Shown one piece after another: positions 1-52,215 of a stretch of 52,215 bases of DNA (positions are counted from its first letter, which is position 1; each line of letters opens with the position of its first letter). Source of the stretch: a virus; the IMG/VR virus record IMGVR_UViG_3300018933_000070, positions 1 to 52,215 of that record. One strand, written 5' to 3'. The notes below the pieces were generated by a model. That model saw nothing but the letters and a program-made list of their open reading frames with translations. It was not told where the DNA came from and made no database searches. Made by a program: the position numbers and the translations under genes.

Positions 1-159
1 TCAGGCCCCTCTTTTCTTACGCCGCACTTGCTTCAAGTACTTCGCGAACGAGTCATAATCATTGATTAGTGTATTGAATTGCTCTGAATCCAGATACACC
101 AGCGGCACAATGACATTACCCTGTACGGCGTAATCAAGATACTGAATGCCTTTAGACAT
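1..159 (-). CDS. small phage protein of unknown function
   Basis: A 52-residue ORF with no family I recognise; it is polar at the C-terminus (a basic VRRKKRG stretch) and has no membrane segment or signal peptide. The ATG at 159 is chosen over a longer in-frame start because an AAAGGAGGG ribosome site lies just upstream of it. That site, followed by GATCCT, closely resembles the one before the serine recombinase at 50063. The stop codon is the first codon of the window, so neighbours to the left are not visible. Confidence 0.55.
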   Translation of the reverse strand: MSKGIQYLDYAVQGNVIVPLVYLDSEQFNTLINDYDSFAKYLKQVRRKKRGA

Positions 160-259
160 CAGGATCCCTCCTTTATGCCTCTTCTTAATTATATCTCCAA
201 TATAACGACAATGATTCATGAATGCAAACCTTTAAGTGAAAAAGCGAAAATTTCCTCAC

Positions 260-457
260 CTACCCAGCATACTTAAATGTACAACTCTCGCGAAGATAAC
301 GCGAATCTCCCACCTTGACACTGTCATCAGTAATTTCATATATCCGTCCGCAGCCGATCAGCTCGTCCTCTATAAATACGGCGACAGGTGTTTGATCGAG
401 CATAGCGGTATGAAAATGTATATCCGCGGTCAGCGGCTTCATAAATCGTCTCATCAT
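260..457 (-). CDS. small hypothetical protein
   Basis: A 65-residue ORF of unknown function; the core (VAVFIEDELIGCGRIYEI) looks like a small beta-rich domain. No clear ribosome site precedes the double ATG at 457, and ATG 442 is an alternative. It sits between the gene at 1-159 and the oppositely oriented ligase, in the cargo end of the prophage. The 200 bases upstream (464-660) hold no other convincing gene. Confidence 0.4.
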   Translation of the reverse strand: MMRRFMKPLTADIHFHTAMLDQTPVAVFIEDELIGCGRIYEITDDSVKVGDSRYLRESCTFKYAG

Positions 458-660
458 AATCAAAATATTACCATAATGTGCTTGTGTTTGGGATATTTAA
501 AGCACAAAAAGTCCAAGTCAGCCAGTAATATGCTTACATGTAGCAGTGTGCTTCTGGGAGATTGAGCTGCCGGGTATGTCTGGACACAATCCCGAATACC
601 ATTACTTACCGCCCCTTTATCGCATAGCTAAGCGCTATAATTCGGAAAAGGGGTGTTTCT

Positions 661-1515
661 ATGTTCATCGAACCAATGTTACTTGCGACCGCCCCCAGAC
701 CGTATTCCGATCCGAATTACATCTATGAGCCCAAGATCGACGGGCACCGGCTCCTGTTCTCACAGAAGGACGGCAAGATCCGGTTGTATACCCGGCACGA
801 GACGGACTGTACGCGGCAATATCCCGAGCTCCTGACGCCGTTTGAAGATGATATCCTTCTGGACGGTGAGGTGGCTTGTACCGACCCAGATACGGGGCTG
901 GTGGACTTTGAGCAAGTCATGACACGATTCCAGGCTAAAAAGGATCCGCGTATCAAGCAGTTGGCCGCAAAGTCACCAGTGACATACGTGGTGTTCGATA
1001 TCCTTCGATACAAAGGTCAAGACCTTCGGAAATTGCCACTCATGCGCCGCAAAGAGATCCTGGCCGGCATCAGCATGCCCAACAAACATTTTGGCGTTAT
1101 ACCTTATGTGGAAGGTGCAGGCGAGGCTTTGTTTGAACAGATGGTGTCTCGGAAACTTGAAGGGATGGTCGGCAAGAGAAAAAACAGTCTGTACGTGAGT
1201 CGGCGATCGCCAGACTGGCAAAAGGTAATCAACTGGTCCCATACTGACGTGATCATAACGGGGTATCGTAAAGATGAATTTGGATTGCTTACAGCTGTCC
1301 TTAATGAGTCTGGTCGGCATCGGCCAGCTGGAATTGTGGAGTTTGTAACGCAGGCGGCTCGCAAAGAGTTCTATTCGAAAAGTCGGGGACTTGTAGCAGC
1401 CGAGGATAAAAAATTTGTACTCTTGGATCCCAAGATACATGGGCGGGTGAAGTTTCGGAATTGGACTAAGTCAGGTATGCTCCGGACTCCGGTCTTCATG
1501 CATTTCATCGAGTAG
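661..1515 (+). CDS. ATP-dependent DNA ligase (LigD ligase-domain-like)
   Basis: A 284-residue protein that should seal nicks in duplex DNA through a lysyl-AMP intermediate. Visible nucleotidyltransferase motifs are EPKIDGHR with the adenylated lysine at K25, a motif III-like stretch (YVVFDILRYKG), motif IV (EGMVGK), and an OB-fold-type C-terminal half ending near RTPVF. It matches the stand-alone ligase domain of bacterial LigD proteins, without polymerase or phosphoesterase domains. The ATG follows a GGAAAAGGGG ribosome site, and a TATAAT box lies at 636-641 without a good -35. It is transcribed opposite to all late genes and followed by a terminator, so it is an independent cargo unit. Whether it serves phage replication or host end-joining is unknown. 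Confidence 0.85.
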   Translation: MFIEPMLLATAPRPYSDPNYIYEPKIDGHRLLFSQKDGKIRLYTRHETDCTRQYPELLTPFEDDILLDGEVACTDPDTGLVDFEQVMTRFQAKKDPRIKQLAAKSPVTYVVFDILRYKGQDLRKLPLMRRKEILAGISMPNKHFGVIPYVEGAGEALFEQMVSRKLEGMVGKRKNSLYVSRRSPDWQKVINWSHTDVIITGYRKDEFGLLTAVLNESGRHRPAGIVEFVTQAARKEFYSKSRGLVAAEDKKFVLLDPKIHGRVKFRNWTKSGMLRTPVFMHFIE

Positions 1516-46803: not shown

Positions 46804-47211
46804 ATGGCTTCATACAATGAAAGGCTTAGGGAATTACGGTCACGAAAGAAAATATCTCAACAGGAACTATCTGATCGTCTTGGGTTTAATCGTGCAACAT
46901 ATGCACGATACGAGACCGGTAATACGCAACCTGATTTTGAAACACTTAAAAAACTAGCCGATTTCTTTGAGGTGAGTACTGACTACTTGTTGGGGCGAAC
47001 TGATAAACCACGTTTTTCAATTCAATCAGATGGTTTTGACGAGAGAGAACAAGCCGAATTCGAAGCATTTATTAACAATCCAGAGCACGGAATATTCTTC
47101 AAAGATTATCTGGACGCACCAGAAGAACGTCGTGAGGAAATGAGGATCATTTTCAAAGCGTTGATGGAAAAAGAAAAAAACCGGAAGCCAGGACAAAGAC
47201 AAGGTGAATAG
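46804..47211 (+). CDS. CI/ImmR-like lysogeny repressor
   Basis: A 135-residue XRE protein: HTH at about 5-62 (LRELRSRKKISQQELSDRLG, NRATYARYETGNTQPDFE), then an acidic helical C-terminus with no LexA-type peptidase. This layout matches ImmR-type repressors destroyed by an ImmA protease, present here at 49166. It should bind the three operators and shut off early genes. Confidence 0.87.
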   Translation: MASYNERLRELRSRKKISQQELSDRLGFNRATYARYETGNTQPDFETLKKLADFFEVSTDYLLGRTDKPRFSIQSDGFDEREQAEFEAFINNPEHGIFFKDYLDAPEERREEMRIIFKALMEKEKNRKPGQRQGE

Positions 47212-49165: not shown

Positions 49166-50050
49166 ATGTTTAGATTTTATGAAACCACTCCATTAGAACA
49201 ATTTGTTGAAAGGACTTATACACATAACGGAATACATACGCCGCAACAGCTGACCGTCGAAGAATTATCCAGGCGTTTGAATATTTGGGTTCATTACAAA
49301 AAGGTCCGGAGTCGTGCGGTAGAAACTGTACCCGGAAGGTATAGTATTTTTCTAGATAATAGATTAACGCCTGAAAAACAATGGGTTGAATTCTTGCACG
49401 AACTCTGTCATTTACTCCGACATGCCGGCAATCAAATGGTGTTACCTAAATCATTTACTAAGGCTCAAGAAATAGAAGCAGACCATTTTGTGCTCTACGC
49501 TGCCATGCCAATTTCTATGATATCCAAGCTCTCACTACCGGATAATCAGACGGATGCTATTCGTTTCTTAGCCTCCACATTTAGAGTTCCGATCTGTATT
49601 GCAAAGCAAAGACTGGAGCAAATCCAGCGAAGGGTATATCACGGAAAGTTGTTGCACGAAACTTCAAAGCTCATGGAGACCCGGAATCGAATCAATTATG
49701 AAGATATCCCAAGCCAGAGTGAAACGACCTTCTATGCTTATTTCGATCCAAGCGGTGATTACATCGAGCCTTCCCAAATTATTATTCAGGTAGATAAAGA
49801 GACCCTTCTTTCTCAAGAGGAACTTTCCTTCTCTCTAGATGGTCCATTCAAACGAATTGAAGAGAGCCAACTGGAGGCCTTCGTCGACTGTAAACCTATA
49901 AAGTTTAATGATTTGGATTACACCAGAGATGGGAAGATCAGTCTAAAGCTGAGCCATCTGGCCAGCAGGTATTATAATTCGGCCTTCAAATTCATTGTTC
50001 AGCGAAAGGATATAGAGCAAGTACTGCATTTTTACGGGGCGAATTTTTAA
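49166..50050 (+). CDS. ImmA/IrrE-type metallopeptidase
   Basis: A 294-residue zinc peptidase. The HExxH motif is HELCH (78-82), and E104 in KAQEIEADHF is the likely third ligand. In ICEBs1 and related phages ImmA cleaves the ImmR repressor on DNA damage. Here about 110 C-terminal residues form an additional beta-rich domain (IIIQVDKETLLSQEELSFSL). ATG 49166 follows AGGAGG. It is separated from its presumed target repressor by two cargo genes and a terminator. Confidence 0.87.
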   Translation: MFRFYETTPLEQFVERTYTHNGIHTPQQLTVEELSRRLNIWVHYKKVRSRAVETVPGRYSIFLDNRLTPEKQWVEFLHELCHLLRHAGNQMVLPKSFTKAQEIEADHFVLYAAMPISMISKLSLPDNQTDAIRFLASTFRVPICIAKQRLEQIQRRVYHGKLLHETSKLMETRNRINYEDIPSQSETTFYAYFDPSGDYIEPSQIIIQVDKETLLSQEELSFSLDGPFKRIEESQLEAFVDCKPIKFNDLDYTRDGKISLKLSHLASRYYNSAFKFIVQRKDIEQVLHFYGANF

Positions 50051-50062
50051 GGAGGGATCCTA

Positions 50063-51820
50063 ATGATTAACTTTGCTGAAAATCAATTCAAAGATGTTGC
50101 TATATATCCCCGAGTATCCAGTGATGATCAACAAGAACGTGAAACTATCCAAAGTCAGATTGAGTTTGCAATCAAATATTGCGAGCTCCATGGCTTAAAT
50201 ATTGTTGATTGGTATAAGGATGATGGCGTGTCAGGGATCATCCCACTTGATGAGCGACCAGAGGGCAAACGTCTTCTAGAGGATGCCAAAGCCGGTAAAT
50301 TCAAAAGCGTCCTCATCTATAATATGAAACGTCTTGGCCGGAAGGCACGCGTGACACTTGATGCCATCTATCAGCTTGAAGAATATGGAGTTACCATCAA
50401 ATCCATGACGGAACCTTTTGATACCAGTACTCCAATGGGCAGATTCGTCATTACTGTTCTCGCTGGCCAAGCAGAGTTTGACAGAGATACTTTGCTTGAA
50501 ACCTTATGGCATGGAGCAAATCGTGTTGCCCGTCAAGGCCAATGGCTGGGGGGAATCGTACCGTATGGCTATGTGGTTATAGATAAATTTCTCCAAGTTA
50601 ACGAGGAGCCTCTCCCGGGGAAAGAGGATCTGTCTGAAGCCGGCGTAATTCGACTAATGTATCACCTTGTTGGAAACGAGAAATGGTCAACCATACAAGT
50701 GGCGGATTACTTTAACTCTTTAAAGATTCCACCGTCCTATGTAAAAGATGGGAGGAAAATAAAGAAAGGAAAACGAAAAGAGAACACGGCCGGAGTCTGG
50801 ACCCCTGGACGAATCAGGAACATGATTGTAAACACGACCTATAAAGGACTCCATGTATACGGTAAACGTTCAAAAAAGGAACGGGAGCTCATTGAAAGAG
50901 AAGTCCCATCAATCGTATCAACAGATCTATGGGATAAAGCTCAAGTTGCGCTTCGCGATAATCAAATTGAGGCTTTTAGAAACCAAACACGACACAATCT
51001 CCTCCGAGGCCTTATTAAATGTGGATCCTGCGGATTAACTTATCATGGTGCCGCGTTCGCTGGGGCTGGACGTAAACCCCAAGCTTATTATATTTGCGGA
51101 GGTAAGACTGCATACAGGGGGCCCGCTCAAGGAAAGTGCTGCTCCAAGAACATTCCAGCTGAATGGATAGAAAAACATGTATGGGATGAATGTGTTCAAT
51201 TTATTGAGAATCCAGGAGAAGCCCTCGAGCAATTAAATGACGGAATGCAGATCAGAAAATCAAAAATTGGAGAGTACCTATCGGAGAAAGAAATTGTACA
51301 AAAGAGCATTGCAGATAAGCAAAACGAGCGACAAGGTATCCTGACCCTATATCGCCAGAAGATGATAACGGCTTTAGATGTTGAAAAGCAGCTTCAAGAA
51401 ATCATGTCTGAAACAGCTGCCTTAGAGAATCGATTAAATGAACTCGATTTATTGATAAATGCTGAAAATGATCTATCTAAAGATTTTAAGACAGCGGAAG
51501 ATCTGCTCTATGATCTTCGTATGAAAATTATCGCCGGCAATAACGCTCCAACCTTCAGCACCCGCCGCGAAATTGTTAAAACGCTGGTACATGAGATAAT
51601 CGTCGACACAATTCCATCACCGACCGGCGGAAGACCAAAAGCATCTGTAAATGTGAAATATGCTTTTAACAAAACGGTTCCCGCTGATTTAGCGTTTGCC
51701 AAAGGTAAAAATCACACGGTTGTCCGTGCGGCTATTACGGCAGCGACCATCCGGCCCAGCAATGCACCTGCAGCGTGGCGAGAATCGCCCAATACCGCGC
51801 GCGGATATCCGGCCCCTTAA
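50063..51820 (+). CDS. large serine recombinase (integrase)
   Basis: A 585-residue recombinase as read here. The resolvase domain has catalytic S19 in YPRVSSDDQQ, plus YNMKRLGRKARV and PFDTSTPMGRF. A recombinase domain and zinc ribbon (LIKCGSCGLTYHG, then GKCCSKN) follow, with a coiled coil at about 410-470. The ATG is behind AAGGAGGG. The ORF crosses the prophage/host boundary near 51720, so its last ~33 residues (VVRAAITAAT onward) come from comM DNA in another frame. The free phage must encode another end. The phage-encoded part is about 552 residues. Confidence 0.93.
   Translation: MINFAENQFKDVAIYPRVSSDDQQERETIQSQIEFAIKYCELHGLNIVDWYKDDGVSGIIPLDERPEGKRLLEDAKAGKFKSVLIYNMKRLGRKARVTLDAIYQLEEYGVTIKSMTEPFDTSTPMGRFVITVLAGQAEFDRDTLLETLWHGANRVARQGQWLGGIVPYGYVVIDKFLQVNEEPLPGKEDLSEAGVIRLMYHLVGNEKWSTIQVADYFNSLKIPPSYVKDGRKIKKGKRKENTAGVWTPGRIRNMIVNTTYKGLHVYGKRSKKERELIEREVPSIVSTDLWDKAQVALRDNQIEAFRNQTRHNLLRGLIKCGSCGLTYHGAAFAGAGRKPQAYYICGGKTAYRGPAQGKCCSKNIPAEWIEKHVWDECVQFIENPGEALEQLNDGMQIRKSKIGEYLSEKEIVQKSIADKQNERQGILTLYRQKMITALDVEKQLQEIMSETAALENRLNELDLLINAENDLSKDFKTAEDLLYDLRMKIIAGNNAPTFSTRREIVKTLVHEIIVDTIPSPTGGRPKASVNVKYAFNKTVPADLAFAKGKNHTVVRAAITAATIRPSNAPAAWRESPNTARGYPAP
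51712..51730 (+). other. attR, right prophage attachment junction (approximate)
   Basis: In the comM frame, coherent ComM sequence begins at TGT 51721 (CPCGYYGSDHP); codons just before it do not give the expected Asn-Pro. The crossover is therefore within a few bases of 51720, next to the integrase 3' end. The exact core cannot be set without attL or attB. Confidence 0.7.
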
Positions 51821-52215
51821 TGGACCGGATCGATCTGCAGGTTGACGTGCCAAGGCCCAAGGAATGGCCGGGAAGCACGCCGCCGCTGTCCTCGAAGACG
51901 ATGCGCGATCGGGTCTATGCCGCCCAGACCATTCAGCTGGAGCGATACCGCCAGCTTCCGATCCGCTGGAACAGCGAATTGTTCGGCAGCTATTTAAGAA
52001 CCCACGCAGCACTCGATAAAGCTTCAGCGGAGCTGCTGCAGGTAACGCTCGATTCCCTGGGGCTCAGCATGCGGGCATATGACCGGATTTTAAAGCTGGC
52101 ACGGACGATTGCGGATCTGGAGGCATCCGTTGAGATACAGAGCCGCCACGTTGCCGAAGCCATTCAATACCGCCAGCTGGATCGGCAGTACATCGTTACG
52201 GAGGAGCCTGGCTAA
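51721..52215 (+). pseudogene. comM: comM/yifB Mg-chelatase-like ATPase, 3' fragment split by the prophage
   Basis: About 164 codons of the C-terminal part: CPCGYYGSDHPAQQCTCS, then ARIAQYRARISGPLMDRIDL, and a helical Mg-chelatase C-terminal domain ending IQYRQLDRQ. These are diagnostic for ComM/YifB, proteins of about 500 residues. The N-terminal two thirds, including the AAA motifs, are missing and presumably lie beyond the left junction. GTG 51775 could restart a short product, but no ribosome site supports it. Base composition here is GC-rich host-type. Confidence 0.87.

What the first reader, a model, noticed from the sequence alone, without database searches (positions are those of the whole stretch)
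51600..51820. Integrase ORF runs across attR and takes its last ~33 codons from host comM
ComM-frame sequence starts at 51721 (CPCGYYGSDHP...), yet the recombinase frame stays open to TAA 51818-51820. So the recombinase C-terminus in the lysogen differs from that in free phage, where the junction joins the other phage end. A state-dependent C-terminus of a serine integrase could bias integration against excision, or mark lysogens.
Basis: partly seen in the sequence, partly recalled or inferred. Interest (0 to 1): 0.8.

Follow-up and report, generated by a model that had tools for sequence, protein, structure and literature searches.

The report
Integrase gene cut by its own integration
In this family of bacterial viruses the attachment site lies inside the integrase gene, so each insertion into the host chromosome cuts a conserved DNA-binding domain off the integrase and replaces it with a scrap of host sequence, giving the virus two forms of the enzyme, one before and one after insertion.

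Summary
The window is an IMG/VR provirus inserted in host comM/yifB. Its large serine integrase (50063-51820, 585 aa) crosses attR, and everything past about 51721 is host comM read in the wrong frame. The empty site in two near-host genomes places the junction exactly there.

What matters is not the 29-residue host scrap, whose length varies freely between hosts, but what it replaces. In 15 of 17 lysogens of related phages with both ends recoverable, joining the ends keeps the integrase frame open through attP into a conserved tandem Cro/C1-type helix-turn-helix module of about 150 aa (total 667-717 aa). This is also seen directly: free phage Harrison encodes 695 aa, while two P. larvae prophages with the identical recombinase stop at 548 aa with comM-derived ends. 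The module has no start codon with a ribosome-binding site of its own and is under purifying selection. attP encodes the flexible linker.

So integration severs a regulatory-looking domain and leaves the catalytic integrase whole. attP-in-integrase switches are known (Mx8; archaeal SSV-type integrases). I found no report for serine integrases or for loss of a whole HTH module. The module's function is inferred. This phage's own attL lies outside the record.

The parts
50063..51820 (+). Large serine integrase ORF as it reads in the lysogen (585 aa); residues 1-556 are the shared/phage-type part
   Evidence: PF00239, PF07508, PF13408; 95-58% identical relatives
51701..51719 (+). attR, phage (P) arm: AAAGGTAAAAATCACACGG; similar arm in class A and class B relatives
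51721..51722 (+). Inferred crossover dinucleotide TG (class A; CA in relatives inserted the other way round)
   Evidence: centre of the near-palindromic attP CACGG N TG N CCGTG
51721..52215 (+). C-terminal part of host comM/yifB (CPCGYYGSDHP...), in frame to its stop at 52213-52215
   Evidence: PF01078; empty site in G064/G067
51731..51817 (+). State-dependent integrase residues 557-585, translated from comM in the wrong frame; relatives' attP encodes D-N-x-S/L-G... plus a tandem HTH module here instead
49166..50050 (+). ImmA/IrrE-like metallopeptidase gene (HELCHLLRH) 12 bases upstream of int, probably one transcript with it; same arrangement in many relatives
   Evidence: (phrog_87 E 3e-16)
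46804..47211 (+). Cro/C1-type (RstR/ImmR-like) phage repressor gene
1..700 (.). Left end of the record; the attL junction and the severed HTH module expected for this prophage lie further left, outside the record
   Evidence: no tail or comM N-half here; G018 aligns from window base 14 at its base 1563, i.e. it extends about 1.5 kb further left, and still lacks attL

Best explanation
The phage attachment site lies inside the integrase gene, in the codons of a flexible linker between a complete large-serine-recombinase body and a C-terminal tandem Cro/C1-type helix-turn-helix module. Free or circular phage makes a ~700-aa integrase-HTH fusion. Integration into comM cuts the gene there: the lysogen keeps a catalytically complete integrase that ends in whatever the interrupted host gene encodes, and the HTH module is stranded at the other prophage end without a start codon. 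Excision restores the fusion. Shown by sequence in relatives, including one phage seen in both states: the split, the conserved frame, the fold class of the module and the selection on it. Inferred for the window's own phage, whose attL is missing. Inferred function: the module is a sequence-specific DNA-binding regulator that acts only before integration, most likely repressing or tuning the repressor-ImmA-integrase region, so that the integrase gene itself reports whether the phage is integrated.
For: (1) Same phage in both states: Harrison free-phage integrase (695 aa) is identical to the integrase of two P. larvae prophages (L032, L033) over residues 13-542, then splits at 543 into HTH module versus comM scrap. 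(2) 15 of 17 lysogens with both ends recovered give an open fusion of 667-717 aa when attP is rebuilt, in Paenibacillus, Heliobacterium, Clostridium, Hathewaya, Megamonas and Desulfoscipio. (3) Further intact fusions in contigs L130-L133 and L049/L136. (4) Module: HTH_3/HTH_19, E down to 1e-19; nearest solved structures include SinR, ImmR of ICEBs1, P22 c2, 434 repressor; ten invariant columns. (5) dN/dS of the module 0.12-0.25. (6) No start codon with a Shine-Dalgarno match of 4/6 or better before the HTH in 15 modules, and two have no start codon at all in the first 45 codons, so it is a 3' gene piece, not a separate gene. (7) AlphaFold model of an intact fusion: recombinase body to ~540, linker 541-575 with pLDDT below 50 where attP lies, two helical HTH domains after it. 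(8) int sits directly behind an ImmA-like gene or a repressor gene in many relatives.
Against: No experiment shows a function for the module. It is missing in Alkalithermobacter, Selenomonas and L044, which still carry the integrase, so it is dispensable for integration. The module does not resemble its own phage's repressor more than other phages' repressors, which gives no support for a shared operator. The window's own attL and tail are not in the record.
Confidence: 0.6

Rival explanations
1. Same anatomy, but the module acts on recombination itself: the fusion favours attP x attB and/or blocks re-excision, while the truncated lysogen form is the one that works with a directionality factor on attL x attR.
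For: Engineered fusions of a directionality factor to serine integrases change directionality (PMC5737554). In Mx8 the lysogen form of the integrase has altered specificity (PMC6070905). The module is physically tied to the enzyme and lost exactly at integration.
Against: Module homology is to Cro/C1 repressors, and similarity to a known directionality factor was not tested. Three lineages manage without the module.
Confidence: 0.22
2. The module is a generic DNA-binding aid that helps a freshly made integrase find or hold DNA. Its loss in lysogens is a tolerated side effect of where attP happens to sit and has no switch function.
For: attP next to or overlapping the end of int is common in phages (own knowledge). 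Selection on the module is clearly weaker than on the recombinase (dN/dS 0.12-0.25 against 0.03-0.04 where both could be computed).
Against: The linker placement of attP and the module are retained across several Firmicute classes, whereas a neutral arrangement could easily move attP past the stop codon.
Confidence: 0.13
3. The stranded module is expressed on its own in the lysogen as a small repressor (a form of integration-dependent immunity).
For: Some modules have an ATG near the junction (e.g. G044, G096, G010). Mycobacteriophages place attP in a repressor gene (PMC9262239).
Against: No ribosome-binding site of 4/6 or better at any candidate start; two modules lack any start codon in the first 45 codons; where examined in class A, the interrupted comM runs in another frame and stops within about 3-16 codons after the junction.
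Confidence: 0.04
4. One reading: the host-derived 29-33 residue tail itself changes integrase activity or marks lysogens.
For: The tail is real and state-dependent.
Against: Lysogen tails in relatives run from about 4 residues to about 170 and have no common sequence; they depend on host frame and orientation.
Confidence: 0.01

Closest known systems
Myxococcus phage Mx8 integrase (attP inside int; C-terminus altered on integration; Tojo 1996, Magrini 1999, as summarised in PMC6070905)
   Same: attP within the integrase coding sequence; lysogen makes a catalytic integrase with a new, host-derived 3' end
   Different: Mx8 Int is not a large serine integrase (own knowledge: tyrosine family) and is not described in the review as losing a folded DNA-binding module
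Archaeal 'suicidal' SSV-type integrases (PMC8371274)
   Same: attP in the integrase gene; integration splits the gene between the two ends of the element
   Different: There the catalytic C-terminal half is severed and the enzyme is lost; here the catalytic N-terminal part stays whole. That review states self-disrupting recombinases are found only in archaea; this family is bacterial
Mycobacteriophage integration-dependent immunity (BPs type, PMC9262239)
   Same: Integration trims the 3' end of a gene containing attP and so changes the state of a regulator
   Different: There attP is in the repressor gene and an ssrA-like tag is removed; here attP is in int and a DNA-binding module is removed. 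Free tails seen here do not end in LAA
comM/yifB (Mg chelatase-like) as serine-integrase target (PMC10083194: 12.4% of predicted site-specific integrases; phage WO sr1WO, PMC9203015)
   Same: Same target gene and the same enzyme class
   Different: No integrase-HTH fusion or gene splitting is mentioned in the passages read of those papers
Engineered integrase-RDF fusions (PMC5737554)
   Same: A domain fused to a serine integrase through a linker
   Different: Natural, HTH rather than a known RDF, and removed by the reaction the enzyme catalyses

Membership tests
Large serine integrases | Resolvase catalytic domain, Recombinase domain, zinc ribbon with coiled coil | tested here: met
   Pfam PF00239, PF07508, PF13408 all over cut-off; a relative's model matches solved Bxb1, phiC31 and other serine integrase complexes
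Large serine integrases | Short attP/attB, crossover at a 2-bp overlap that sets polarity | tested here: met
   TG in all examined insertions of one orientation, CA in all of the other; sequence inference only
Large serine integrases | Recombination activity | not testable with these tools
   no experiment
Integrases with attP inside their own gene and a state-dependent C-terminus (Mx8 type) | Lysogen C-terminus encoded by host DNA | tested here: met
Integrases with attP inside their own gene and a state-dependent C-terminus (Mx8 type) | Reading frame continues through attP into phage DNA in the free phage | tested here: met
   Met in Harrison (direct), L049, L130-L133 and 15/17 rebuilt attP; not readable for the window's own phage because attL is outside the record
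Archaeal suicidal integrases | Integration separates the catalytic domain and abolishes the enzyme | tested here: not met
   catalytic N-terminal domains intact in the lysogen form
Integration-dependent immunity (BPs type) | attP inside the repressor gene; ssrA-like degradation tag removed by integration | tested here: not met
   attP is in int; free tails end in e.g. TIIE, VLKT, ILHM, ILS, not LAA
Integrase fused to a recombination directionality factor | C-terminal module acts as RDF | not tested
   module is Cro/C1-type HTH by sequence; RDF activity needs an assay

The most novel reading that the evidence does not exclude
A serine integrase that carries its own integration sensor: before integration it is an enzyme-repressor fusion that controls the phage's early/lysogeny region and its own level. 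The recombination reaction deletes the repressor part, locking in the lysogenic programme, and excision rebuilds it. The phage's life-cycle state is written into the protein by its own catalysis.
Probability: 0.35. Interest if true: 0.88.

Novelty: new variant of a known kind. Interest (0 to 1): 0.74.

Why it matters
It shows that serine integrases, the workhorses of genome engineering, come in a natural form whose C-terminal domain is removed by the reaction itself, and it extends integration-driven gene switching to a widespread bacterial phage family targeting comM. It makes a testable claim about how phages couple integration to gene control. It warns that integrases annotated from prophages in this family are truncated and carry host-derived ends, so their cloned 'full-length' genes are not what the virus uses. 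The family also gives a natural series of polarity switches (TG versus CA overlap) in one enzyme family.

Tried and rejected
Finding this phage's own severed tail: not at the window's left end, not in the 95% relative's record, which extends about 1.5 kb further left, and no viral contig matched the closest known tail. Chance explanation: rejected, because the frame stays open for ~150 conserved codons in 15 of 17 rebuilt cases. Separate-gene explanation for the tail: rejected for lack of start codons with an RBS. Shared operator between tail and the phage's own repressor: no support, own pairs do not score best as a rule. Acetoanaerobium phage ANDSL2_ph1 as a second free form: rejected, because int there ends as in the lysogen, in comM-type sequence. 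Two-way integration by one palindromic core: rejected, the core is asymmetric and flips between lineages instead. Phage WO as a parallel (Mg-chelatase target with HTH_XRE genes at the far end): not pursued, the record at hand was unannotated and WOCauB3 was not held.

Full report
What is in the window. The window is an IMG/VR provirus record (G000, 52,215 bases) whose right end is the C-terminal part of host comM/yifB. The integrase gene (50063-51820, 585 aa) is a large serine recombinase with all three usual domains. It starts 12 bases behind an ImmA/IrrE-like protease gene (49166-50050) and belongs to a region with a Cro/C1-type repressor (46804-47211). Two near-host genomes with an intact comM (95% identical) read ...ATGAATCCG TGTCCGTGCGGCTATTACGG..., while the window reads ...CACACGGT TGTCCGTGCGGCTATTACGG...: host sequence begins exactly at 51721. 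The integrase frame continues into comM in the wrong frame and stops at 51818-51820.

What the free phage encodes. Paenibacillus phage Harrison (isolated virus, KT361651) has a 58% identical integrase annotated as one long CDS of 695 aa. Past residue ~542 it runs through the attP sequence GGAACTCCTGTCCGTGAAAATAACAACC into about 150 residues with two Cro/C1 HTH domains. Two P. larvae prophage records (L032, L033) carry an integrase identical to Harrison's over residues 13-542 that departs at residue 543 and ends in comM-derived residues. This is the same gene in both states, read directly.

Generality. For 17 lysogens I recovered both prophage ends and rebuilt attP by joining them at the overlap dinucleotide. 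In 15 the integrase frame stays open across attP and ends after an HTH module, giving 667-717 aa. In the lysogens themselves the same genes end after 519-720 aa, depending only on host frame and orientation. Intact fusions also occur in metagenomic viral contigs L130-L133 and L049/L136. The exceptions are Alkalithermobacter (stop before attP) and Selenomonas (stop soon after attP). L044 also stops before its att site. On an integrase tree the presence/absence pattern needs three changes, consistent with three losses from an ancestor that had the module.

The module is a real protein domain and part of int. Pfam HTH_3/HTH_19 hits reach E 1e-19; nearest solved structures include SinR, ImmR of ICEBs1, P22 c2 and 434 repressor. 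It is under purifying selection (dN/dS 0.12-0.25, against 0.03-0.04 for the recombinase in pairs where both could be computed). None of 15 modules has a start codon with a Shine-Dalgarno match of 4/6 or better in its first 45 codons, and two have no start codon there at all. It is thus a 3' piece of int that is stranded and probably silent in the lysogen. An AlphaFold model of an intact fusion places the attP-encoded residues in a linker of pLDDT below 50 (541-575) between the complete recombinase body and two helical HTH domains (pTM 0.40, so domain arrangement is not informative). Foldseek matches are to serine integrases such as Bxb1 and phiC31.

How it most likely works. Shown by sequence in relatives: the integrase gene is cut by its own reaction, the catalytic part survives, and the HTH module is removed. 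Inferred: the module is a DNA-binding regulator that acts only before integration, probably on the repressor-immA-int region next to which int lies. A direct effect on recombination direction is the main rival. A test of a shared operator with the phage's own repressor gave no support. The host-derived tail itself is not conserved and is unlikely to matter.

Limits. The window's own attL and severed module are outside the record: the nearest relative's record (95% identical integrase) reaches about 1.5 kb further left and still does not include them, and a search for close copies of the module in viral contigs found none. That this phage follows its relatives rests on its place in the tree. 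The nearest relatives with both ends recovered, G044 and P. dokdonensis G001 (83% identical), and G096, all have the module in frame.

Side finding on polarity. Relatives insert at the same comM codons in either orientation. The near-palindromic attP arms are alike, but the central dinucleotide is TG when int points into the C-half and CA when int faces the N-half. On the integrase tree this label changes about seven times (at least five forced by well-supported branches), once between close relatives L003 and L029 (the same pair of phages as G002 and G133 by class and tree position shows 85% identical recombinases). This agrees with the known rule that the central dinucleotide alone sets the orientation of serine integration (Ghosh 2003, cited in PMC10083194).

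Compared with what is known. comM as a serine-integrase target is known (PMC10083194, PMC9203015). attP inside the integrase gene with an altered C-terminus is known for Mx8 (PMC6070905), and gene-splitting integrases are described as exclusive to archaea (PMC8371274). Integration-trimmed regulators are known in mycobacteriophages (PMC9262239). In the held literature I found no report of a serine integrase with an HTH module that is removed by integration. Only open-licence papers were searchable. Verdict: a new variant of a known kind, with the anatomy strongly supported and the function open.

Noticed in passing
L003, L005, L007, L009, L011, L023, L024 versus window, L002, L004, L028, G044: Related phages insert in opposite orientations at the same comM codons; the attP overlap dinucleotide is CA in one class and TG in the other, and it has flipped about seven times on the integrase tree.
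   Followed up: yes
L016:10001-12151 and G044 (L152:1416-3578): In some lysogens the integrase frame has no early stop: L016 fuses in frame to the rest of ComM (716 aa), and G044 reads comM out of frame to 720 aa.
   Followed up: partly
L052 (PP197248.1, Acetoanaerobium phage ANDSL2_ph1, 'complete genome'): In the deposited phage genome int ends as in a lysogen, followed by what looks like the reverse complement of the host comM N-half, so it looks like prophage coordinates rather than the free phage.
   Followed up: partly
G030:106-495, G031:109-483, L134, L135, L137 and window left end: Provirus records are trimmed so that the severed HTH module is cut or lost from the record, and prophage integrases of this family are easily misread as complete.
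   Followed up: partly
L097 (Pelosinus fermentans, G013): A degraded relative of the prophage with pieces of the HTH tail at two places lies next to an intact comM, as if the prophage had decayed or moved after comM was restored.
   Followed up: no
L090 (Clostridium ganghwense, G008): Besides the comM N-half used by the prophage there is a second, inverted partial copy of comM within 2 kb.
   Followed up: no
class B lysogens, e.g. L003:11600-12872: In class B insertions the comM promoter faces the integrase gene, so host transcription could run antisense into int.
   Followed up: no
window 661-1515: Phage-borne ATP-dependent DNA ligase-like gene near the left end (similar to a gene annotated 'RNA ligase family protein' on Paenibacillus plasmids).
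   Followed up: no
[quoted passage not shown]
   Followed up: no
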